A DNA stretch of 64,000 bases. Source: an uncultured bacterium. Its GTDB lineage: Bacteria > Verrucomicrobiota > Kiritimatiellia > CAIKKV01 > CAIJXV01. Location: positions 1 to 64,000 of the forward strand of contig CAIJXV010000086.1 of assembly GCA_903824675.1 (NCBI GenBank), given 5' to 3'. The notes beneath the pieces are model-generated. The model searched no databases. It saw only the letters and a list, made by a program, of their open reading frames with translations, and was not told the DNA's origin. A program made the position numbers and the translations under genes. This document shows positions 47,482 to 56,348 of this stretch, piece after piece (positions within the stretch are counted from its first letter, which is position 1; each line of letters begins with the position of its first letter).

Positions 47482-47658
47482 TCAGACCGCTAAGATCTTC
47501 ACGCCTTTAGAATGTCGCCCCAGCCTGATATGTGTGTAAAATCGCAGGCCCCGATCTTGCATCGGTAATGCCGGGGTATGCGTTTTTGGGCCTACGGGTT
47601 GAAAAGGGGGTGTGAGGTTTTGGCGCTGAACAGAGTGCTCTTTGAGGTAGTAGCCCAT
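47482..47658 (-). pseudogene. Degenerate RHS-type fragment (58 codons)
   Basis: A small open frame whose translation begins MGYYLKEHS and later reads PVGPKTHTPALPMQDRGLRFYT. It parallels the first 52 residues of the RHS tip at 54535 (MGYHLKIPT, PVGPITHSPDSPLQHRGHRFYN). It loses the RHS signature after RFY and stops. The DNA resemblance covers most of the frame, with gaps. It appears to be the remnant of another RHS end at the left edge of the accessory island. No function is suggested. Confidence 0.6.
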
Positions 47659-47724
47659 GGTGATTCCTATGGGCCAGATACTACTGCGAGAAGGGCGGGA
47701 TTGGAAGCCCAGAATGCCGACAAA

Positions 47725-47979
47725 TTAAGACTTTTTAGGGTCGTCCAATTTATCGTAATCGTCCGGGGGAATGTCCGGGGATTGGGACAGAATTTCCCGG
47801 AACCGTTTAACACTGCCCCGTTTTGCCCGAGCTTCCAAATAGGGATCGGGAATGGTTGAACTCAACCGTTGGATCAAGGCTAGAGTCGTGAACTCGTCGA
47901 GGGAGATATTCCCCACCCGGAGCACCTGCTCGACTTTGTCATTTACCTCATCGGGTATCATAACCTGAAGTTTGGTCAT
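47725..47979 (-). CDS. Putative antitoxin of a PIN-domain toxin module
   Basis: 84 residues from ATG 47979 (an in-frame GTG 6 nt upstream is less likely). The N-terminus, MTKLQVMIPDEVNDKVE, looks like the strand and first helix of a ribbon-helix-helix-type DNA-binding region. The rest is an acidic, probably disordered tail (PDIPPDDYDKLDD) able to wrap the toxin. Its start overlaps the PIN gene stop by 4 nt (ATGA), so the toxin is translated first, the reverse of the usual vapBC order. Confidence 0.65.
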   Translation of the reverse strand: MTKLQVMIPDEVNDKVEQVLRVGNISLDEFTTLALIQRLSSTIPDPYLEARAKRGSVKRFREILSQSPDIPPDDYDKLDDPKKS

Positions 47980-48404
47980 GGGCACCCCTCCAATATCTTT
48001 AAAAATTCACTTGGTCGAACCGCATGAATACCAAAACGATTCAATCCTTTGAAATCTTTCGTATTAAAGGTTATCACATACGCTGCCCCAGCTTCAACAG
48101 CCAATTCCAGCACAAAATCGTCTCCCGGATCTGATAAGATCGGCCGATAACGCACCGCAATGTTTTGACGACGAGCGACCGACAGCATACCATCCACGGC
48201 TTCATCAGCCAGCGCCAACGGTCGGCCTTGCTCCTTCAGGGTACGCTTTAGCGCCGACTCGTATTCCAGCAACAACGCCGTCGAGATGTTTATTTCCCAA
48301 CGGGGATCTCCAATACCTAACAACAGTTTATTGGACGCCCCGTTGCTCGACCGCACCGCCGCCACCAGCACATTGGTATCGACAACCACTTGAATCGGTT
48401 CCAT
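47976..48404 (-). CDS. PIN-domain ribonuclease toxin
   Basis: 142 residues from ATG 48404, with AAGGAG 5 nt upstream. PIN acidic residues are present: VVVDTNVLVAA (first Asp), LLEYESAL (Glu), PGDDFVLELAVEAGA (Asp) and FNTKDFKGL (last Asp). These form a metal-dependent RNase site. The sequence resembles the group annotated as 'putative toxin-antitoxin system toxin component, PIN family'. It lies between the recombinase genes and its antitoxin, at the left end of the accessory island. RNA target unknown. Confidence 0.8.
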   Translation of the reverse strand: MEPIQVVVDTNVLVAAVRSSNGASNKLLLGIGDPRWEINISTALLLEYESALKRTLKEQGRPLALADEAVDGMLSVARRQNIAVRYRPILSDPGDDFVLELAVEAGAAYVITFNTKDFKGLNRFGIHAVRPSEFLKILEGCP

Positions 48405-48455
48405 CGGTTCTCCTTGACCGCCTCTTGTAGCAGAATCCGCCGCCATGGCAAGCCT

Positions 48456-49397
48456 TCAATCCCCCTGCGCGGTCCGCTCCTCCTGCTCCCTGGGATGGCA
48501 CTTCTCGTGGGTAACCTTCAGGTCGGTGATGGTCAGCTTGGCGTAATGCTTGAGGGTCTCCAGGGACTCGTGGCCGAGCAGTTCCTTCACGTGGTACATG
48601 TTGGCGCCACCCCGCAGCAGTTCCGTGGCGCAACTTCTGCGGAAGGTATGCGGCGTCACCTCAATCGAAATCCCCGCCTTCCGGGCGCACGCCTTGATTT
48701 GACGCCGGAAGGTGTAATACGGGAACCGCCGCCCCGACGAGTCCACGAACAAGGACGGCTGATCCGGTCCCGCCGACACCGCCCGAATCGCCCGGATATA
48801 GCTCTCCAGGTATTGCAGGGCGGTCTTGCCGATCGGTACCACCCGCTCTTTCCGCCCCTTGCCCAACACCTTCGCCGTCGCGTTCTTGAAATCCACCGCC
48901 CCAATGTCCAACCCCAGGAGTTCGGCCACCCGGATGCCGCTGGAATAGAGCACCTCCAGCATCGTTCTCAAGCGGTAGCCATCCGGAGTTTCTGTGGAAA
49001 CCACCCGCAACAGCCTCGTCATCGAGTCATGCGTCAGGATGTTGCCCGGCAACAGGAAGGGCTCCTTCACGTACTGCAACACGGACGCCATTTGCTGGCT
49101 CACCACCCCGGTCTTCGCCAAGTGTTTCAATAGGCCGTTTACGGTTTCGACGTACTTGTTGATGCTCCGCGGCTTGAGCGGCCGCCCGGTGGGGTTGGTC
49201 TTTTTGGACAGTTCTTGCTGCCAGGCTTGCAGGTGCTTGGCTCGCAACCGGTCCGGCTCCCCCACCCGCTGCCGCTCATCCAGCCATCGGATGAAAACGC
49301 CCGCGCAATAGCGCGACTGCCGGATCGTATAGGCGCTGAAGTTGAGCGACCGCAAATGGTCCATATATTCCCCATGATAGTCGGCCAGCGTCTTCAT
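48456..49397 (-). CDS. Tyrosine recombinase B (second of a coupled pair)
   Basis: 313 residues. The N-terminal SAM-like domain (residues 1-95) is followed by the catalytic domain, which keeps the usual residues: Arg in SSGIRVAELLGL, Lys region KGRKERVVP, HTFRRSCATELL (His-x-x-Arg), LLGHESLETLKHY (His and the nucleophile Tyr). It therefore looks active. Its ATG overlaps the stop of the other recombinase (ATGA at 49394-49397), so the two are translated together and may act as a heteromeric integrase, as in Tn554-type or recombinase-in-trio elements. Here there are two, not three. Confidence 0.85.
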   Translation of the reverse strand: MKTLADYHGEYMDHLRSLNFSAYTIRQSRYCAGVFIRWLDERQRVGEPDRLRAKHLQAWQQELSKKTNPTGRPLKPRSINKYVETVNGLLKHLAKTGVVSQQMASVLQYVKEPFLLPGNILTHDSMTRLLRVVSTETPDGYRLRTMLEVLYSSGIRVAELLGLDIGAVDFKNATAKVLGKGRKERVVPIGKTALQYLESYIRAIRAVSAGPDQPSLFVDSSGRRFPYYTFRRQIKACARKAGISIEVTPHTFRRSCATELLRGGANMYHVKELLGHESLETLKHYAKLTITDLKVTHEKCHPREQEERTAQGD

Positions 49398-50299
49398 TGC
49401 CCCACCCGGCTATTTTCGTGCGCCCGCTTGAGATCGGCGATGGATACTTTGAGGTATTGCTCCAGATTCTCCAGGGTCGCATGCCCCAATAATTGCTGAA
49501 TGGCCACTGGACTGGCCCCCCGCCGAAGCATATGGGTCGCACAGGCCCGCCGGATCGAATGCAGTCCGATCCGCGTCTGGATATTCCCCTGGCGTTGATA
49601 CTGCCGCAGGTTGATCACAATGGCGCCGGCGCCCAATGGGCGTCCCGTCGCCGCCAACCACAGCGCCTCCCCGCTCCCTCCCGCCGCCCAATCCCCGCGT
49701 ACTTCGTCCAGATACCGCCCGACCCAGTCCAACGCCACCTGGCCGACCGGCACCATCCGTTCCTTGCCCCCCTTCCCGAAGATGCGCGCCTCGCTGGCGT
49801 CCCGCTGAATGGACGAGACCTTCAGATCGAGCAGTTCCTGCCGCCGAACCCCGGTGCTGTACACGAATTCCAGCATGGCCCGATCCCGGATTCCGACCGA
49901 CGTGGCCACCTTTGGCTGGCCGAGCAGTATCCGCATCTCCTCCTCTGTGGGCACGGGCTGCAAAAGCGTCGGCACCTTCATGACCGGCAGCCCCTCGGCC
50001 GGGTTTTCAAATATCGCCTGCTGTTCCTCCAAATGCCGGAAGAAACCCCGAATCGCCTGAAAATAGGACTGAATCGAGGCGGGCTTGAATCGGCGCTCCA
50101 ACAGATTGAGGCGATAGGCCTCCAGGTCGGGGGCGAGAATCGACCGGACATCCGGTTTCTTCACCCGCGCCACGAAATCCCCCAAGGCCCGCCGATAACA
50201 GTCCACCGTGCGCAAACTGAACCGCCTGGCTTGCAAGGTCTCGACGTAAAGCCCGACTTCTTCACCTATGCCTTTCACTTTTTTTTCGAGATTTCCCAT
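49394..50299 (-). CDS. Tyrosine recombinase A (first of a coupled pair)
   Basis: 301 residues from ATG 50299, with AAAGGA 4 nt upstream; a GTG 9 codons earlier is less likely. Core residues are STGVRRQELLDL (Arg), GKGGKERMVPVG (Lys), LHSIRRACATHML (His and Arg) and LLGHATLENLEQY (His and Tyr). It is clearly homologous to, but diverged from, its downstream partner. It follows the primase-like gene by 49 nt, an interval that also holds the edge of a palindrome/direct-repeat cluster (50361-50414). Confidence 0.85.
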   Translation of the reverse strand: MGNLEKKVKGIGEEVGLYVETLQARRFSLRTVDCYRRALGDFVARVKKPDVRSILAPDLEAYRLNLLERRFKPASIQSYFQAIRGFFRHLEEQQAIFENPAEGLPVMKVPTLLQPVPTEEEMRILLGQPKVATSVGIRDRAMLEFVYSTGVRRQELLDLKVSSIQRDASEARIFGKGGKERMVPVGQVALDWVGRYLDEVRGDWAAGGSGEALWLAATGRPLGAGAIVINLRQYQRQGNIQTRIGLHSIRRACATHMLRRGASPVAIQQLLGHATLENLEQYLKVSIADLKRAHENSRVGQ

Positions 50300-50348
50300 A
50301 CTATCCTTTCGTGGTAATCTGGTCACCCGCAGTGCAACCCGTTGTTGT

Positions 50349-52679
50349 TTAATCGGTTAAGTGGTGTTCACCACCACTGACCACCCCTGGTAAGCCCTGG
50401 TAATCCTTGGTAATCCCCGAACCCGCATTGATCCCATTTTTGCATAAAACAGGGGGATAACCGCCACCCAGGTCTCCAAAGCACACCCGATAATGGTAAC
50501 TCGACCCGATTCGGCGCGATTCCATCGCTAAAAATTCCATGTCCACCAGTTGCACGATATACCGCTTGATGCGCATGTGCGGCCACCCGGTGAATTCCCG
50601 GATTTCCCGGCGGGTAAACAGGATGTCCTCCCGGTGCGGGCCCCGGCCCGTTTCAGGGTCCGTCTCCTTCGCCACCCGCTCGTTGACCAGGCTCTCAATC
50701 TGGGCCAGCAAATCTCGACTGACCCGGTTGAGGTCGTCCAGGCTTTTACCTAAAATCTCGTCCGCCAAGTTGGTCGCGATCCGCAGGTCGTCTTCATCCA
50801 CTTCCACATAGTCCCGGCCATTGCGGCTTCGCACCGGCTTGCGCATCTGCCGTAAAAAAGCCACCGCATTGATGAGGTTGAGATATTTGGGTTGATCCCG
50901 CCGGCTCTGGAGCCGGTCATCCGTGTAGGCCAGTTGTTCCGCAAAGGGGTTCATTACCGCCAGAGGCTTCAATAGCCGTTGGTAGTTCCGGTGCTTCCGG
51001 ATCGCCGCCTCCCGTTCCGAGCCACTGCCCCGTCCTTCCCAGGTCCGACGCTTGCGCTGGCTTTCCAAGATGGCCCGCGTCTGCTCCCGGCTCTCGTCCA
51101 CGCCGGTCACGAAGAACCGGCTGCGCGTCTCGGGGTCCACGTCCGGGTTGGTCGTCGTGATGAAGACGCTCGTCGGACCCTCCACCCGGTTCTGCATCGT
51201 CGTGAGCCGGCCGCTGCCCAGGTCCTTGACCGTCGTCTCGATGACGAGTTCGCCCGCCGAGATCAGATTCCGGATGGCATAGGACGCCTGGCTGACCCCC
51301 GCCTCCTCCTCCAACGCCAGGATCTTGTGTTTCAGGCTGTTGGTGCCTTTGTAGAAGAGCGCCTTGCCCGTGAGGCTCGTGAGCTTGACTACATCTTCCG
51401 GGGGACACATCAGCAGGGTGGCGTCCTGCAGGGTGCTCTTCCCGGCTCCGGAACTGGAGAGGATCAGCACCGAAATGGGCTCGTCGGTCTTCCGGCTGAT
51501 CGCCGCCAGGTAGCACAGCAGTTTATTGGACTCCTCGCCCACCAGACCACAAGCATCGAAGTCCTGCAATATGACGGCGCAAATGTCCTCGGCCGTGCCC
51601 AAGGCGGTCGCCTCCTGCTGCTCCTCGTCGGTCATGGCGATGAGCGGCGGCGCGTTACTCGTGCGCTCCAGCGGGGAATAGTCCTCGCAAAGCTTGATGA
51701 GCTTGACCAGGTCGCCGTCGATGATGTCAGGGGATTCCTCGAAAAAACAGCACAGGTCCTGCACCAGGGTCTTGCGGGATTTGGCTGAGTACAAATCGAG
51801 CGTATCCACATGGAGCTTACCGAACCGCTCGGTCTTGATCGTCATTTTGAGTTTCCGGCCATTCTTGTCGATGCCCAGCACCTCATAGCGACGGCGGCCC
51901 AGGGAAACGACAAACCCCTGATCGTTGGATTCCGGTCGGCCTTCGCCCGTCTTGACCGATGTCGTCAGGCGCTCGATCTCGGCGACCAATTCGGCTGGCC
52001 CTTTTTGCGCCAGAAAGTCGTTGGGCGCAAGGGGGTGGAATCGGACCGAAAAACCCGCCAATTGCTCCATGACGAGCCTTGCCGCAGATGGATTTCCAAA
52101 GAGGCTGATGCGCCGCACCCCGCAATCATGGAGATAGTTGAGATCCAGCGGTTTTAGGTGATTGCCGATGACCGCGCAGGCGTGTGGAAATCCGACACGG
52201 TGCAGGCTGAGGCCGTCCGCCAGCTTCAGGGTCAGGAGCAGTTCCGGATACAGCCGGGCGACCCGGGCATTCCACAGGGCCGTCGGAGACAAAGGGGCCA
52301 GCAGATCCTCCGTTGTCCCCAGGGATATTCCGGCGAGCCCCACCAGACCGCCGTCGCCATCCGTCATCGGCACCGTGATGTGGTGCAAAAAGTATTCCTG
52401 CCCCACGACCGTCATGAGACCGATGCTTCGCAGGGCATCCTTGAGTTCTTCGCCCTCCTTCGGAAGGGTCGTGATGAGGCGGCCGTTGGCACAGCCGAGT
52501 TGGAAATGGGCGATCAGTTCCGGGTCGTCAAGCCGGTGGCGCTGGAGCCAGCTTCGCGCCTTTTGGGCGCTGGGCATGGCTTTTTGATAGAACCGGGCCA
52601 CTTTTTCGATGAGCCCGGCCGGCACCCTGGGCTCTTCCGGCTGGGGCCGCTCGTCCTGTTCCTGGTTTTCGTCCGACAT
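50349..52679 (-). CDS. Primase/P-loop ATPase-like protein of a mobile element
   Basis: 776 residues from ATG 52679, with GGGAG 7 nt upstream. The first 260 residues resemble the DnaG-type core: YQKAM near residue 31, LQRHRLDDPELIAHFQLG, and a degenerate Toprim (RRISLFGNPSAARLV then PNDFLAQKGPAELV) in which the expected acidic DxD is missing. No CHC2 zinc finger is present. From about residue 400 a P-loop ATPase follows: Walker A SSSGAGKST near 408-416, Walker B-like ILALEEEAG, and ITTTNPDVDPETRSRF. The C-terminus resembles a winged helix (ILFTRREIREFTGWPH). It could serve as the element's helicase, with or without priming. Confidence 0.65.
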   Translation of the reverse strand: MSDENQEQDERPQPEEPRVPAGLIEKVARFYQKAMPSAQKARSWLQRHRLDDPELIAHFQLGCANGRLITTLPKEGEELKDALRSIGLMTVVGQEYFLHHITVPMTDGDGGLVGLAGISLGTTEDLLAPLSPTALWNARVARLYPELLLTLKLADGLSLHRVGFPHACAVIGNHLKPLDLNYLHDCGVRRISLFGNPSAARLVMEQLAGFSVRFHPLAPNDFLAQKGPAELVAEIERLTTSVKTGEGRPESNDQGFVVSLGRRRYEVLGIDKNGRKLKMTIKTERFGKLHVDTLDLYSAKSRKTLVQDLCCFFEESPDIIDGDLVKLIKLCEDYSPLERTSNAPPLIAMTDEEQQEATALGTAEDICAVILQDFDACGLVGEESNKLLCYLAAISRKTDEPISVLILSSSGAGKSTLQDATLLMCPPEDVVKLTSLTGKALFYKGTNSLKHKILALEEEAGVSQASYAIRNLISAGELVIETTVKDLGSGRLTTMQNRVEGPTSVFITTTNPDVDPETRSRFFVTGVDESREQTRAILESQRKRRTWEGRGSGSEREAAIRKHRNYQRLLKPLAVMNPFAEQLAYTDDRLQSRRDQPKYLNLINAVAFLRQMRKPVRSRNGRDYVEVDEDDLRIATNLADEILGKSLDDLNRVSRDLLAQIESLVNERVAKETDPETGRGPHREDILFTRREIREFTGWPHMRIKRYIVQLVDMEFLAMESRRIGSSYHYRVCFGDLGGGYPPVLCKNGINAGSGITKDYQGLPGVVSGGEHHLTD
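50361..50414. repeat. Palindrome and tandem 10-bp repeats ahead of the recombinase pair
   Basis: GTGGTG-tt-CACCAC (50361-50374) is followed by CCCTGGTAAG, CCCTGGTAAT and CCTTGGTAAT (50385-50414). A further TGGTAAT is at 50312-50318. All but the last lie in the final codons of the primase-like gene, upstream of recombinase A. The arrangement looks like a recombinase-binding or iteron-like site. Confidence 0.55.
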
Positions 52680-53169
52680 GGTTCCGCTCCCGCTTGCCGG
52701 GCATACACTTTTCCGGGCAAGCAGAGGCACGGTAGCACGGGCACGGGGTAGACCCTATCGAGATACGTAACGCATCGAGCAGTTCCTTCACAACGCACGA
52801 CTTTCCAGGCGCTTGGAAAAGGTTCAGAATCCGTAACGCGCCGCTCTTGGGGTGGGATACTTTCGCCCAAAAACGGGTCTTTTTGAGCGAAACCAGGGGC
52901 ACCAGCAGTTCCATGATGAACGAGCGGCGACGGTGCTTGCGCCAGTAGTTGGGATGTTGCTCCCGCCACACCCGGACCCGGGCCAGGTCGGCCTCGCCGG
53001 ACGGGAAGTGGTTATGCCGCCGCCAGGCCCGGGTAGTCTTCCGACGGCGGGCTTTCTGGCAGTCGGGGTCGGAGCAGAATTTCTGGCGGGCAGCCGACCG
53101 GGGGTTGGGTTCATACCACTCACCGCAATGGATACAGCGTCGCAGCCGAAACCGTTTCCTTATTGGCAT
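52528..53169 (-). CDS. Zinc-ribbon protein of the mobile element
   Basis: 213 residues from ATG 53169, with AAGGAGG 8 nt upstream. A zinc ribbon has Cys at about 12, 15, 32 and 37 (RCIHCGEWYE, KFCSDPDCQKARRR), followed by a basic stretch and WREQHPNYWRKHRRR (about 68-82). From memory this HP-x-YW pattern recurs in small proteins next to recombinase and primase genes. The reading frame continues 152 nt into the primase-like gene in another frame; the last 50 or so residues are Gly/Arg/Ala-rich and probably not conserved. A DNA-binding accessory role is likely but unproven. Confidence 0.6.
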   Translation of the reverse strand: MPIRKRFRLRRCIHCGEWYEPNPRSAARQKFCSDPDCQKARRRKTTRAWRRHNHFPSGEADLARVRVWREQHPNYWRKHRRRSFIMELLVPLVSLKKTRFWAKVSHPKSGALRILNLFQAPGKSCVVKELLDALRISIGSTPCPCYRASACPEKCMPGKRERNHVGRKPGTGRAAPAGRAQGAGRAHRKSGPVLSKSHAQRPKGAKLAPAPPA

Positions 53170-53296: not shown

Positions 53297-53782
53297 CTAG
53301 TGCGCTTTTTGGTCAAAGAAAAACATATCGATGAAAGAAAAGTATTTATCTTTTAGAATAAATTCGCATTCATAATCTAGAGATTTATCCTTGGATTCAA
53401 GAATTATCCGAAGGGAATAATTACCTTCCGGAAAAGATCGATCAACACCTTCCTTTTTATTATACACCCAAAATGTTTGCCACTTGTCGTTTTGGGAATT
53501 TGCATAATTATTCGGCACAACACTGATGTTCAGAGCCCCCATTTTTGCATGTTTTATGAATGACTTTTCCAAATTAAGAGACATCGGAACATCGGATGCT
53601 TTATCAAGCGATATGCACAGTCGTTTTTTTTCGGCGGATATTACTAATCGACGTGATTCAAGATGCTGCCATTTATCTGCATATGTGATTTGTGGTATGC
53701 TTGTGCAAGAACTTCCAAGCAAGAGAATAATGCAAATCGAAATTTGCCCTGTCAATAAGAACGGATTAAAATTCATTCGCAT
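53297..53782 (-). CDS. Putative lipoprotein, candidate immunity protein for the PLA2-type RHS tip
   Basis: 161 residues. A hydrophobic N-terminus (ISICIILLLGSSC) ends in a Cys at about residue 26 within a loose lipobox, so a lipid-anchored periplasmic or outer-membrane protein is plausible. The remainder is beta-rich with no known enzyme motif. It is AT-rich, unlike the flanking mobile unit. It begins 9 nt after the toxin-tip gene on the same strand. A small secreted or anchored protein directly behind a polymorphic toxin tip is the usual place for its immunity gene. That role is inferred from position and localisation, since a phospholipase would attack membranes from the periplasm. ATG 53776 is an alternative start. 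Confidence 0.55.
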   Translation of the reverse strand: MRMNFNPFLLTGQISICIILLLGSSCTSIPQITYADKWQHLESRRLVISAEKKRLCISLDKASDVPMSLNLEKSFIKHAKMGALNISVVPNNYANSQNDKWQTFWVYNKKEGVDRSFPEGNYSLRIILESKDKSLDYECEFILKDKYFSFIDMFFFDQKAH

Positions 53783-53791
53783 GCCACGCTA

Positions 53792-54535
53792 TCAAGGGCC
53801 GGTAATCGGATCTACGGAACAGAAATAACAGATGATACCATTTCGAGCCGCACCGAAAGTGGTAGACTTTTTCGCACAAGAGCAAAGATTGTCATTACAA
53901 GCACGGGAACATCCGCCCCTCCATAATGGCGCGAGCAGTTCGGAATAATCCATAGGATTATTGATTCCTGCGCAACAGGCATCGTGTGTAAAACAGCATG
54001 AATCTAAATCATCGATGGACGGAGGATACCCACTCCCCATTAGGTACGAAAGCCAAGGGAAGTCATAACTAGCCTTAGGCATGCCACCAGTCCAATTCGG
54101 CCCGCACCAATTGCCATGTATCTCCAATAACCCCAATCCATCAACTTTATTAACACCATCATTATGTCCAAATAAATAAACCGGCACTGATTTATTTTGA
54201 TCAATTTCTAATTTTACTCGATAAGCCAGATTGCGAAGCTTTTGAAGTTTTTCTGCCACAGTACCGGTAATTTTAATGTTTGCTCCGTCAAAAAGTTGGT
54301 GCCCTTGATAGATATGATTCAATGCAAATGAAAGTTCCCCAATCGGATCCCGACTCATCCACCTCCCGGTCTCACCATTGTAAAATCGGTGGCCCCGATG
54401 TTGCAGCGGTGAGTCGGGGGAATGCGTTATTGGCCCTACGGGTGAAACAGGGGCCTGCCCTGCGAAGCTATCCGAGCGAAGCAGGTGTGTGCGTTCTGGG
54501 CCGGTCGAGGTCGGAATTTTAAGGTGATAGCCCAT
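53792..54535 (-). CDS. Orphan RHS tip with phospholipase A2-like toxin domain
   Basis: 247 residues. A short N-terminal stretch is shared with the degenerate copy at 47658. Residues 50-67 keep the RHS repeat-end signature (RFYNGETGRW then RDPIGE). The C-terminal domain has a PLA2-like calcium loop WCGPNWTGG (about 143-151) and the catalytic helix DDLDSCCFTHDACC (about 175-188, His184-Asp185). Many Cys follow, as in disulfide-rich secreted PLA2s. The large RHS core and any export domain are absent, so this looks like a displaced C-terminal cassette, possibly donated to a full RHS gene by recombination. The next gene is its candidate immunity protein. Confidence 0.72.
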   Translation of the reverse strand: MGYHLKIPTSTGPERTHLLRSDSFAGQAPVSPVGPITHSPDSPLQHRGHRFYNGETGRWMSRDPIGELSFALNHIYQGHQLFDGANIKITGTVAEKLQKLRNLAYRVKLEIDQNKSVPVYLFGHNDGVNKVDGLGLLEIHGNWCGPNWTGGMPKASYDFPWLSYLMGSGYPPSIDDLDSCCFTHDACCAGINNPMDYSELLAPLWRGGCSRACNDNLCSCAKKSTTFGAARNGIICYFCSVDPITGP

Positions 54536-54557
54536 GGATAACGCCTCTGATCACTGG

Positions 54558-54731
54558 TCAGGCGGTTCGACGGCGTAGCGCCGGCTGAGGACCGCGCACA
54601 CAGAGTCGCGATGCATGTTCTTTCTGATGAATCAGTGCATACTCAAGTAATGTCTGGCCGTGCGCCTTGACATCCTTTTCAATGGCCAGACGATGTTTGC
54701 GGATTTCCGCCACAATGGGGTCGATTTTCAT
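54558..54731 (-). CDS. Small partner of the second PIN module (candidate antitoxin)
   Basis: 57 residues, starting MKIDPIVAEIRKHRLAIE, a charged helical protein with no recognised DNA-binding motif. Its ATG overlaps the stop of the PIN gene by 4 nt (ATGA). The last 15 or so residues (GPQPALRRRTA) run into sequence near the RHS-tip border, so the original C-terminus may have been altered. The antitoxin role rests on position only. Confidence 0.5.
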   Translation of the reverse strand: MKIDPIVAEIRKHRLAIEKDVKAHGQTLLEYALIHQKEHASRLCVRGPQPALRRRTA

Positions 54732-55207
54732 GATTCCTCCATCAATTCCTCGGGCGTGCAAAGCACTGGCGTCCGAATACCTTCCTGACTGTTGATTAAA
54801 TCCAGTTGCCGCTGGACCCGCGCACTGGCAATGTGCGAGCAATTCCAACTCACCAGATAATCCATCCCATGCCAACTCGCCAACGCCATGTGATAGGCAT
54901 CGACCTCGCATTCCCCTGGAATATTCAGTTTCGCGAGATACAGCTTGGCCAACCGATCCACCTCGGGACCAAATTCCAACAAAGGCAAGTGCCCAACACT
55001 CGCAATCCGCAACTTTGCCGCCTCCGGATCGCCCCGGCCGACCTCATCCAGCACGAAGACCGAAACATAGGCATCAAAGCCAGGCAAAGCCGCATCCCAC
55101 CATTCCCGCGTAATTTGCTGATGCGCCGCAACAACCAAGTCCCGGTTCGGCCGGGAAACCAGATAACTCACGACCGATGACTCGATATACACACTGGGAC
55201 GGTTCAT
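54728..55207 (-). CDS. PIN-domain toxin, second module (VapC-like)
   Basis: 159 residues. PIN signature residues are VYIESSVVSYLVSRP (acidic Glu where most have Asp), VLDEVGRGD (Glu region), CEVDAYHMALASWHG (Asp) and LVSWNCSHIAS near the end. These support a metal-dependent ribonuclease fold. The start is ATG 55207; no strong ribosome site is seen. The gene sits between the two RHS tips. Its partner follows with a 4-nt overlap, again toxin first. Confidence 0.72.
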   Translation of the reverse strand: MNRPSVYIESSVVSYLVSRPNRDLVVAAHQQITREWWDAALPGFDAYVSVFVLDEVGRGDPEAAKLRIASVGHLPLLEFGPEVDRLAKLYLAKLNIPGECEVDAYHMALASWHGMDYLVSWNCSHIASARVQRQLDLINSQEGIRTPVLCTPEELMEES

Positions 55208-55279: not shown

Positions 55280-55522
55280 TCATAATCGCAATTCCGGATC
55301 ATCTTTTGTTGATTTTCGGCATGACAACCAAGACCCGATTCCACATAACGAAAAAACCGTCACCATTGTGATAATGGGGCCCACCAGAATTTCTTTGAAT
55401 GAAATTGACCCTGCATACGAAGTTGTACGCTTTAACGTGATCAAAAGGACTACACACAAGACATAAAGCCCCACAGACAAGGCCATCAATAACACTAACC
55501 GTTTTCGTATAAAAAAAATCAT
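55280..55522 (-). CDS. Two-helix small membrane protein, candidate immunity protein for the adjacent RHS tip
   Basis: 80 residues from ATG 55522, 10 nt behind the RHS tip stop; the longer frame upstream overlaps that gene. Two hydrophobic segments (about 9-30, LVLLMALSVGLYVLCVVLL, and 49-70, ILVGPIITMVTVFSLCGIG) are joined by a short polar loop, and the C-terminus is charged. Small two-helix inner-membrane proteins are a common form of immunity to membrane-acting toxins. Inference from position and topology only; no family is recognised. Confidence 0.5.
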   Translation of the reverse strand: MIFFIRKRLVLLMALSVGLYVLCVVLLITLKRTTSYAGSISFKEILVGPIITMVTVFSLCGIGSWLSCRKSTKDDPELRL

Positions 55523-55532
55523 TCGAGTTCTA

Positions 55533-56348
55533 CTAACGTGGTTTACAGTGACAGTATTTCTGCTGTGCTTCTTTTCCCGCATTGCCAATGTCAAAAACAG
55601 TATCAAGCACTACAGCCAAATCAATGATGGCGTCAGCTGTTAGGGCGCCAGCCGTAACGGTTCCGCCAACAGCACCTTTGGCGCCTGTCTTTATTGCCCA
55701 CAGACCAACGAGTCCACTTGCGCCACTCATTAATATTTTCATGGCATCCGGGCCCGACGCTACACCTATAAAGCTCGCCTGAAATTCGCCAACCTTAGCG
55801 GCTATGGCCTTTTCACATTCTGTAATGCCTTCTTCTGAAAAGTTGCCTGTTTCAAATGACTTATAGTCCTGCACCTTAAGTCCCGGCACGGACTCGAAGT
55901 ATTTGTTCCACCCATGAATCGCTGTGGATGCAATGGGAATCCACTCCCACCAAGCAGTTCCAAAATAATCAATTCTTAACAGAGGATTATTACCGACAAA
56001 TCCGTATAGGTTTAACCCACCCATCTCCCCAATCGGATCCCGTTTTTGCCACCGTCCTAACAGGGGATTGTAAAATCGGTGGCCGTAGTAATATAGGGTG
56101 GTCTCGCGATCGAGATATTTAGTGCTGAAAGCATAGGGATTTAGCGCCAGAACTTGCGCATCTCCAGCCTGGACAACGGTTTCGCCAAACGGGCTATATT
56201 CGTAATGGGCGGCGATAACCCCGGTATCTCCATTGATGATGTCCGAAACGTTCCCCTTTGCGTCATAAGAATAGATATTAACCGGTCCACCTGTCAAAAG
56301 GGTGTCGTAGTAGTACTCACAAGAGCCAGTCAAAATCTTGAAAGCCAT
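55533..56348 (-). CDS. Orphan RHS tip with uncharacterised hydrophobic C-terminal domain
   Basis: 271 residues. The first 130 are RHS core end: a YD-type repeat (YSYDAKGNVSDI, YEYSPFGE) and the signature RFYNPLLGRW...RDPIGE...NLYGFVGNNP. Beyond the IDYFG boundary, 140 residues form a variable tip with a Gly/Ala-rich hydrophobic region (LMSGASGLVGLWAIKTGAKG then GGTVTAGALTADAI), possibly membrane-active. No known toxin motif is recognised. The reading frame starts 5 nt after the gspF stop, with no upstream RHS core, so it is a displaced cassette. A candidate immunity gene follows after 10 nt. Confidence 0.7.
   Translation of the reverse strand: MAFKILTGSCEYYYDTLLTGGPVNIYSYDAKGNVSDIINGDTGVIAAHYEYSPFGETVVQAGDAQVLALNPYAFSTKYLDRETTLYYYGHRFYNPLLGRWQKRDPIGEMGGLNLYGFVGNNPLLRIDYFGTAWWEWIPIASTAIHGWNKYFESVPGLKVQDYKSFETGNFSEEGITECEKAIAAKVGEFQASFIGVASGPDAMKILMSGASGLVGLWAIKTGAKGAVGGTVTAGALTADAIIDLAVVLDTVFDIGNAGKEAQQKYCHCKPR

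What the first reader, a model, noticed from the sequence alone, without database searches (positions are those of the whole stretch)
53297..54535. Orphan RHS tip with a phospholipase A2-like toxin domain and an adjacent lipoprotein-like candidate immunity gene
Seen: RHS end signature (RFYN...GRW, RDPIGE) followed by a calcium-loop-like WCGPNWTGG and the PLA2 catalytic pattern CCFTHDACC; 9 nt later a 161-residue protein with a signal and a Cys near residue 26. Known: PLA2-like domains occur among polymorphic toxin tips, and immunity genes normally follow. Inference: a membrane-attacking effector whose immunity protein is anchored in the periplasm or outer membrane, a pairing I cannot match to a named system.
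Basis: partly seen in the sequence, partly recalled or inferred. Interest (0 to 1): 0.75.

Follow-up and report, generated by a model that had tools for sequence, protein, structure and literature searches.

The report
RHS toxin tip with plant-type phospholipase
A bacterial genome carries a spare toxin tip that resembles the small secreted phospholipase A2 enzymes of plants and venoms, followed by a gene for a membrane-anchored protein that probably protects the owner. The toxin type was already known in outline, but this enzyme variant and its likely protector have not been described.

Summary
On the minus strand, 53792-54535 encodes a 247-aa orphan RHS tip and 53297-53782, 9 nt later, a 161-aa lipoprotein-like protein. 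Residues 135-247 are a PLA2-superfamily domain: Ca-loop HGNWCGPNWTGG (140-151), DSCCFTHDAC (178-187), CNDNLCSC (213-220). No Pfam PLA2 model reaches its cut-off. However, a family profile finds rice secretory PLA2 (E=1e-4), and the window domain aligns directly with the printed rice fragment (z=9.2). The third active-site position is Asn214, as in many plant enzymes, and not Asp. Four bacterial MAG loci fuse the same domain to full RHS cores. In three of them the downstream gene is membrane-anchored (one lipoprotein, two multi-TM); in the fourth it is a transposase. So envelope-anchored immunity recurs, but the immunity proteins are unrelated. The 161-aa protein has no detectable homologue, so its role rests on position and signal sequence. 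Structure prediction was inconclusive. The RHS part is only about 20-25 residues behind a repeat-derived leader, and the genome lacks a T6SS sheath gene, so the ORF is probably a stored cassette. RHS-PLA2 tips are already catalogued (Tox-PLA2, no immunity listed); lipase/lipoprotein pairs are known (Tle/Tli, TslA/TilA). Verdict: real; a new variant of a known kind.

The parts
53792..54535 (-). Orphan RHS tip ORF, 247 aa, with C-terminal PLA2-superfamily domain
   Evidence: ORF; TIGR03696 E=2.5e-6; PLA2 hits in PDB
54398..54535 (-). Leader (residues 1-46), not RHS-derived; includes a 33-bp dispersed genomic repeat; related copies at 47535-47660 and at C88:20606-20693
54329..54397 (-). RHS core remnant (GHRFYNGETGRWMSRDPIGE and flanking residues)
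   Evidence: TIGR03696 match at 54329-54418; motif positions
53795..54133 (-). PLA2-superfamily domain (residues 135-247), 11 cysteines in 113 aa
   Evidence: alignment A2; profile hit to rice sPLA2 E=1e-4; direct alignment z=9.2
54083..54118 (-). Calcium-loop motif HGNWCGPNWTGG (residues 140-151)
   Evidence: GNWCGPNW and a following G invariant in 14 aligned members
53975..54004 (-). Active-site helix DSCCFTHDAC (residues 178-187; His184/Asp185)
   Evidence: fits DxCCxxHDxC of plant sPLA2 (PMC9995887); HD invariant
53876..53899 (-). CNDNLCSC (residues 213-220): Asn214 where relatives mostly have Asp; rice sPLA2 has CNENLLSC
53297..53782 (-). 161-aa lipoprotein-like protein, candidate immunity gene; GC 0.36
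   Evidence: lipobox-pattern match ICIILLLGSSC, Cys26; no homologue found; GC
55533..56348 (-). Second RHS tip in the same island, 271 aa, C-terminal domain unknown
   Evidence: TIGR03696 E=1.2e-22
55280..55606 (-). 108-aa membrane protein with two hydrophobic stretches overlapping the second tip: candidate immunity gene

Best explanation
This is a stored (orphan) RHS toxin-immunity cassette. Shown by sequence: the toxin half is a cysteine-rich PLA2-superfamily domain with Ca-loop, His/Asp pair and a third active-site position of plant (group XI) type (Asn), joined to a very short RHS remnant. Inferred: once carried into a target cell's envelope by a full-length RHS protein, it would fold with disulfides in the periplasm, bind Ca2+ and cut membrane phospholipids at sn-2. 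The downstream lipoprotein would sit in the owner's periplasm and block the domain. In its present form the ORF lacks an export signal and most of the RHS cage, so it is more likely a reservoir or remnant than an active weapon, while the lipoprotein may still protect against the same toxin from neighbours.
For: PLA2: profile to rice sPLA2 E=1e-4; window domain directly z=9.2; weak bovine PLA2 hits over residues 165-237. The domain occurs at the end of intact RHS cores in four MAG loci. Downstream genes in three of those loci are one lipoprotein and two multi-TM proteins. The window gene has a lipobox match. Both window genes are low in GC (0.43 and 0.36 against 0.55), as expected of an acquired cassette. 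11 Cys in 113 aa suits an oxidising compartment. The genome has full-length RHS genes on C20 and C5 with signal-like N-termini, and the C20 one is also followed by a lipoprotein-like gene. Plant sPLA2s use Asn, Ser or His at the third position (PMC6635587). Lipoprotein immunity to envelope phospholipases is established.
Against: No curated PLA2 family reaches its cut-off. The AlphaFold model has mean pLDDT 59 and no Foldseek match. The 161-aa protein has no homologue, so association cannot be tested, and it is unrelated to the L026 lipoprotein. The ORF lacks most of the RHS core. The genome has no VipB, so apparently no T6SS. No activity or binding is shown.
Confidence: 0.6

Rival explanations
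1. A decaying relic: a fragment of an RHS gene whose toxin half happens still to be open. Neither gene works as a weapon; at most the lipoprotein is kept as orphan immunity.
For: RHS remnant of about 20-25 residues; altered DPxGL end; leader built partly of dispersed repeats; related leaders at 47.5 kb and on C88 run into stops soon after.
Against: 247 open codons; all invariant PLA2 family positions retained, the third active-site residue (nearly invariant) being the exception; immunity candidate intact 9 nt downstream; an AGAGG lies upstream of the start.
Confidence: 0.25
2. The PLA2 toxin is real but the 161-aa lipoprotein is an unrelated neighbour.
For: No homologue and no interface evidence; lipoproteins are common genes.
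Against: 9-nt spacing, same strand, similar low GC; independent RHS-PLA2 loci also place an envelope protein next; standard toxin-then-immunity order.
Confidence: 0.2
3. The domain has the PLA2 fold but is catalytically inactive because of Asn214, and acts, if at all, by binding membranes.
For: Asp at this column in nearly all other aligned members; some animal PLA2 homologues are inactive (general knowledge).
Against: Plant sPLA2s have Asn, Ser or His there and are reported active (PMC6635587); rice sPLA2 has CNENLLSC at this place; Ca-loop and His/Asp intact.
Confidence: 0.1
4. The domain is a captured viral entry or release enzyme rather than an RHS toxin in origin.
For: 15 small circular IMG/VR contigs carry standalone close relatives.
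Against: Same domain at the tips of intact RHS proteins in several bacteria; 45% identity to one RHS tip, at least as close as to any viral copy.
Confidence: 0.05

Closest known systems
Tox-PLA2 domain of polymorphic toxins (Zhang et al. 2012, PMC3482391)
   Same: PLA2-superfamily domain at the C-terminus of polymorphic toxins, RHS repeats listed among contexts
   Different: Defined there by DxC[ST], CxxHxxxYxN, C (PDB 1kp4 type); here the site is DxCCxxHDxC with a GNWCGPNW loop. No immunity gene was listed for Tox-PLA2; here a candidate exists
Plant secretory PLA2, group XI (rice sPLA2, PDB 2wg7-2wg9)
   Same: Pattern close to YGKYCGxxxxGC; DxCCxxHDxC; CNxNLxSC with Asn at the third active-site position; rich in Cys
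   Different: No eukaryotic signal peptide, fused to RHS, only 11 Cys, different surroundings; group membership not shown by a tree
Tle/Tli T6SS lipase effector-immunity pairs (Tle1/Tli1, Tle3/Tli3; PMC9860674)
   Same: Envelope phospholipase toxin neutralised by a small lipoprotein encoded next to it
   Different: Tle1-4 are GxSxG Ser hydrolases of another fold; T6SS delivery; no T6SS sheath gene in this genome
TslA/TilA T7SS lipase and immunity lipoprotein (PMC10730906)
   Same: Phospholipase toxin with lipoprotein immunity
   Different: Different lipase domain, T7SS, Bacillota, gene order reversed
Orphan rhs tips, e.g. of Salmonella (PMC3967940, PMC7043789; abstracts)
   Same: Displaced RHS C-terminal toxin without the delivery part
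   Different: Here the conserved core is too short and diverged to show DNA identity with the full-length rhs genes of the genome

Membership tests
RHS polymorphic toxin tip | RHS-associated core domain before the toxin | tested here: inconclusive
   TIGR03696 25-28 bits, below the 32.5 cut-off; only profile positions about 26-55
RHS polymorphic toxin tip | Same toxin domain found at the end of intact RHS proteins | tested here: met
   L023, L024, L025, L026 score 71-87 bits for TIGR03696, PLA2 domain at their ends
RHS polymorphic toxin tip | Immunity gene immediately downstream | tested here: inconclusive
   ORF 9 nt downstream with lipobox; immunity not shown
Secretory PLA2 superfamily | Ca-binding loop and DxCCxxHDxC His/Asp site | tested here: met
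   Residues 140-151 and 178-187; loop and HD invariant in A2
Secretory PLA2 superfamily | Profile or sequence homology to solved PLA2s | tested here: met
   rice sPLA2 E=1e-4; z=9.2; no Pfam PLA2 model over its cut-off
Secretory PLA2 superfamily | PLA2 fold | tested here: inconclusive
   Helices 42-54 and 77-89 of the domain carry the site, but mean pLDDT 59 and no Foldseek match
Secretory PLA2 superfamily | Third active-site residue Asp (animal) or Asn/Ser/His (plant) | tested here: met
   Asn214, plant type, by alignment
Tox-PLA2 (Zhang 2012) | DxC[ST], CxxHxxxYxN motifs | tested here: not met
   Window has DSCCFTHDACC, no Tyr-x-Asn after the His; no PF09056 match
Tle/Tli | T6SS delivery | tested here: not met
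   No VipB (PF05943) in a genome about 96% complete
Tle/Tli | GxSxG Ser hydrolase or phospholipase D effector | tested here: not met
   PLA2-type His/Asp site instead; no such family match
Tle/Tli | Lipoprotein immunity neutralises the effector | not testable with these tools
   Needs binding or protection assay

The most novel reading that the evidence does not exclude
RHS tips carry an unnamed family of plant-type (GNWCGPNW / DxCCxxHDxC) PLA2 toxins, found in several bacterial phyla and neutralised by several unrelated envelope-anchored immunity proteins (lipoproteins and multi-TM proteins), with its nearest standalone relatives in tiny circular virus-like elements.
Probability: 0.4. Interest if true: 0.55.

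Novelty: new variant of a known kind. Interest (0 to 1): 0.42.

Why it matters
The main polymorphic-toxin catalogue lists PLA2 tips without any immunity partner (PMC3482391). This locus and three others suggest that partners exist and share a location (the envelope), not a fold. That gives a concrete test of where such toxins act. It also shows a PLA2 of plant-like active-site type in bacterial RHS proteins that Pfam and NCBIfam do not recognise at their curated cut-offs.

Tried and rejected
Pfam, NCBIfam, PHROGs, PDB, plasmids, viral contigs and 388 genomes of the phylum gave no homologue of the 161-aa protein. Its AlphaFold model is unusable (pLDDT 34). Foldseek with the toxin model found nothing. 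The hit in G035 (L008) is spurious, in an unrelated ORF; the phage hit H1 is E=0.3 and unannotated. The phylum search with the profile gave only G338, a standalone PLA2-like protein with GNWGGPGN and AADRAL. The plasmid and phage collections hold no relatives of the L024-L026 tips tried. T6SS delivery was rejected for this genome. The SCO1-SenC and poxvirus A51 matches are below cut-off and taken as chance. Recombination of this tip with the full-length rhs genes of the genome was considered; no DNA match to them was listed.

Full report
Observation. The upstream one, 54535-53792, encodes 247 aa; its TGA is followed by 9 nt and the ATG of a 161-aa ORF, 53782-53297. The toxin ORF has three parts. 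Residues 1-46 are a leader that is not RHS: it contains a 33-bp element dispersed in the genome on contigs C48, C105, C11, C1 and C54, and related leaders lie at 47535-47660 of the window and at C88:20606-20693. Then come about 20-25 residues of RHS core (GHRFYNGETGRWMSRDPIGE), which score 27.9 bits against TIGR03696, below its cut-off. About 50 extra residues lead to an altered RHS end, NKVDGLGL. Residues 135-247 are the putative toxin.

What the toxin domain is. Pfam gives only a sub-threshold match to PF00068 (E=2.3), and phmmer gives bovine PLA2 at E=0.014. Relatives make the case. Four are RHS proteins with RHS cores over the cut-off (71-87 bits to TIGR03696) ending in this domain: L023 (a Pseudomonadota MAG), L024 (Geothrix), L025 (Geobacteraceae) and L026 (Desulfobacteraceae). 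L027 (Burkholderiaceae) is not RHS. Scans of viral contigs gave 15 small circular contigs and one phage-like contig. In an alignment of 14 members GNWCGPNW, a later G, the Asp and Cys before the site, HisAsp and a distal Leu are invariant. The RHS relatives' Pfam matches are all weak, but most point to PLA2 families (PF08398, PF00068, PF06951). The profile's best solved relatives are rice secretory PLA2 structures 2wg7-2wg9 (E=1e-4; that the entries are rice sPLA2 is from my own knowledge, the tool names them 'putative phospholipase A2'). The window domain aligned directly with the fragment printed there scores 72 against a shuffle mean of 27.2, sd 4.9, maximum 49 in 2000 (z=9.2). So membership of the PLA2 superfamily is well supported by sequence.

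Active site. The Ca-loop HGNWCGPNWTGG is close to the plant pattern YGKYCGxxxxGC, and DSCCFTHDAC fits DxCCxxHDxC (PMC9995887). At the third position the aligned relatives nearly all have Asp, but the window has Asn214 in CNDNLCSC, where the rice enzyme has CNENLLSC. Plant secretory PLA2s carry Asn, Ser or His there, and these residues were reported able to fulfil the role of the animal Asp (PMC6635587, citing Mansfeld et al. 2006). I therefore do not read Asn214 as proof of inactivity, but activity is not shown. The alignment leaves open that Asp215 plays the part. The structure prediction is inconclusive: mean pLDDT 59, with blocks over the site helices at about 75-84, and no Foldseek match.

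The partner. The 161-aa protein begins with a hydrophobic segment ending in LLLGSSC, which satisfies the classical lipobox pattern. It is low in GC (0.36) like the toxin part (0.43), against 0.55 for the window. No library, collection or any other of 388 genomes of the phylum holds a homologue, and its structure could not be predicted from one sequence. Indirect support comes from the other RHS-PLA2 loci. L026 is followed by a protein of up to 245 aa with a lipobox match; L024 and L025 are followed by small proteins with two or three hydrophobic stretches; L023 is followed by a transposase-like ORF and is uninformative. With the window that is four of four informative loci with an envelope-anchored downstream protein. 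The number is small, the L026 and window lipoproteins show no similarity, and no formal background rate was computed. The C20 rhs gene of the same genome is also followed by a lipoprotein-like 144-aa ORF, unrelated to the 161-aa protein.

How it most likely works. Inference: delivered into the target envelope, the cysteine-rich domain would fold in the oxidising periplasm, bind Ca2+ and hydrolyse phospholipids, and the lipoprotein would shield the owner at that place. Lipase toxins with lipoprotein immunity are established: Tli1 and Tli3 (PMC9860674) and TilA (PMC10730906). The present ORF, however, has no export signal and hardly any RHS core. The genome has no VipB, so apparently no T6SS, while its full-length rhs genes on C20 and C5 begin with signal-like segments. 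I therefore favour a stored or displaced cassette over a weapon ready for use; simple decay remains a serious rival.

Comparison with the known. RHS-linked Tox-PLA2 is in the catalogue of Zhang et al. 2012 with the motifs DxC[ST] and CxxHxxxYxN and with no immunity protein listed. The window domain does not meet those motifs, so it should not be filed under that subfamily, although it is the same kind of toxin. It works like Tle/Tli but is not a member: different active site and no T6SS. My verdict is a new variant of a known kind.

Noticed in passing
L009-L022, L057: 15 circular IMG/VR contigs of 2.0-2.4 kb (direct terminal repeats of 58-144 nt) encode standalone relatives of this PLA2 domain next to a conserved ORF of about 170-205 aa without a convincing Pfam or PHROG match, and show no ORF of 110 aa or more with a Walker motif. 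Tisza et al. 2020 (PMC7000223) already mark a PLA2 cluster among 'dark matter' circles.
   Followed up: partly
window 47535-47660 and 54379-54537: Two related copies of the toxin's leader (81% over 75 nt, plus the shared start ATGGGCTA) lie 6.8 kb apart, flanking two overlapping tyrosine recombinases (48456-49397, 49394-50326) and a 793-aa primase/AAA-like ORF (50349-52730).
   Followed up: partly
window 55280-56348: Second RHS tip (271 aa) with unknown C-terminal domain and an overlapping 108-aa membrane protein, probably another toxin-immunity cassette.
   Followed up: partly
window 54558-55207: PIN-domain-like ORF (54728-55207, weak Pfam match) followed by a short ORF MKIDPIVAEIRKHR..., perhaps a VapBC-type pair between the two RHS cassettes; another PIN_3 ORF at 47976-48446.
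   Followed up: no
L035:3794-9602: Full-length 1582-aa rhs gene, then a 144-aa lipoprotein-like ORF, then a 217-aa orphan RHS tip: the same kind of parts elsewhere in the genome.
   Followed up: partly
L027:5682-8960 and L058:3-1987: Non-RHS PLA2-like proteins (YGNWCGP[NG]WSAG near the N-terminus), each preceded by an ORF that resembles a TolB-like beta-propeller protein (the one in L058 is cut at the locus edge); possibly effector-immunity pairs.
   Followed up: no
L029:1210-1932: Standalone lipoprotein-like PLA2 relative with GNWGGPGN loop and AADRAL in another genome of the phylum (G338).
   Followed up: no
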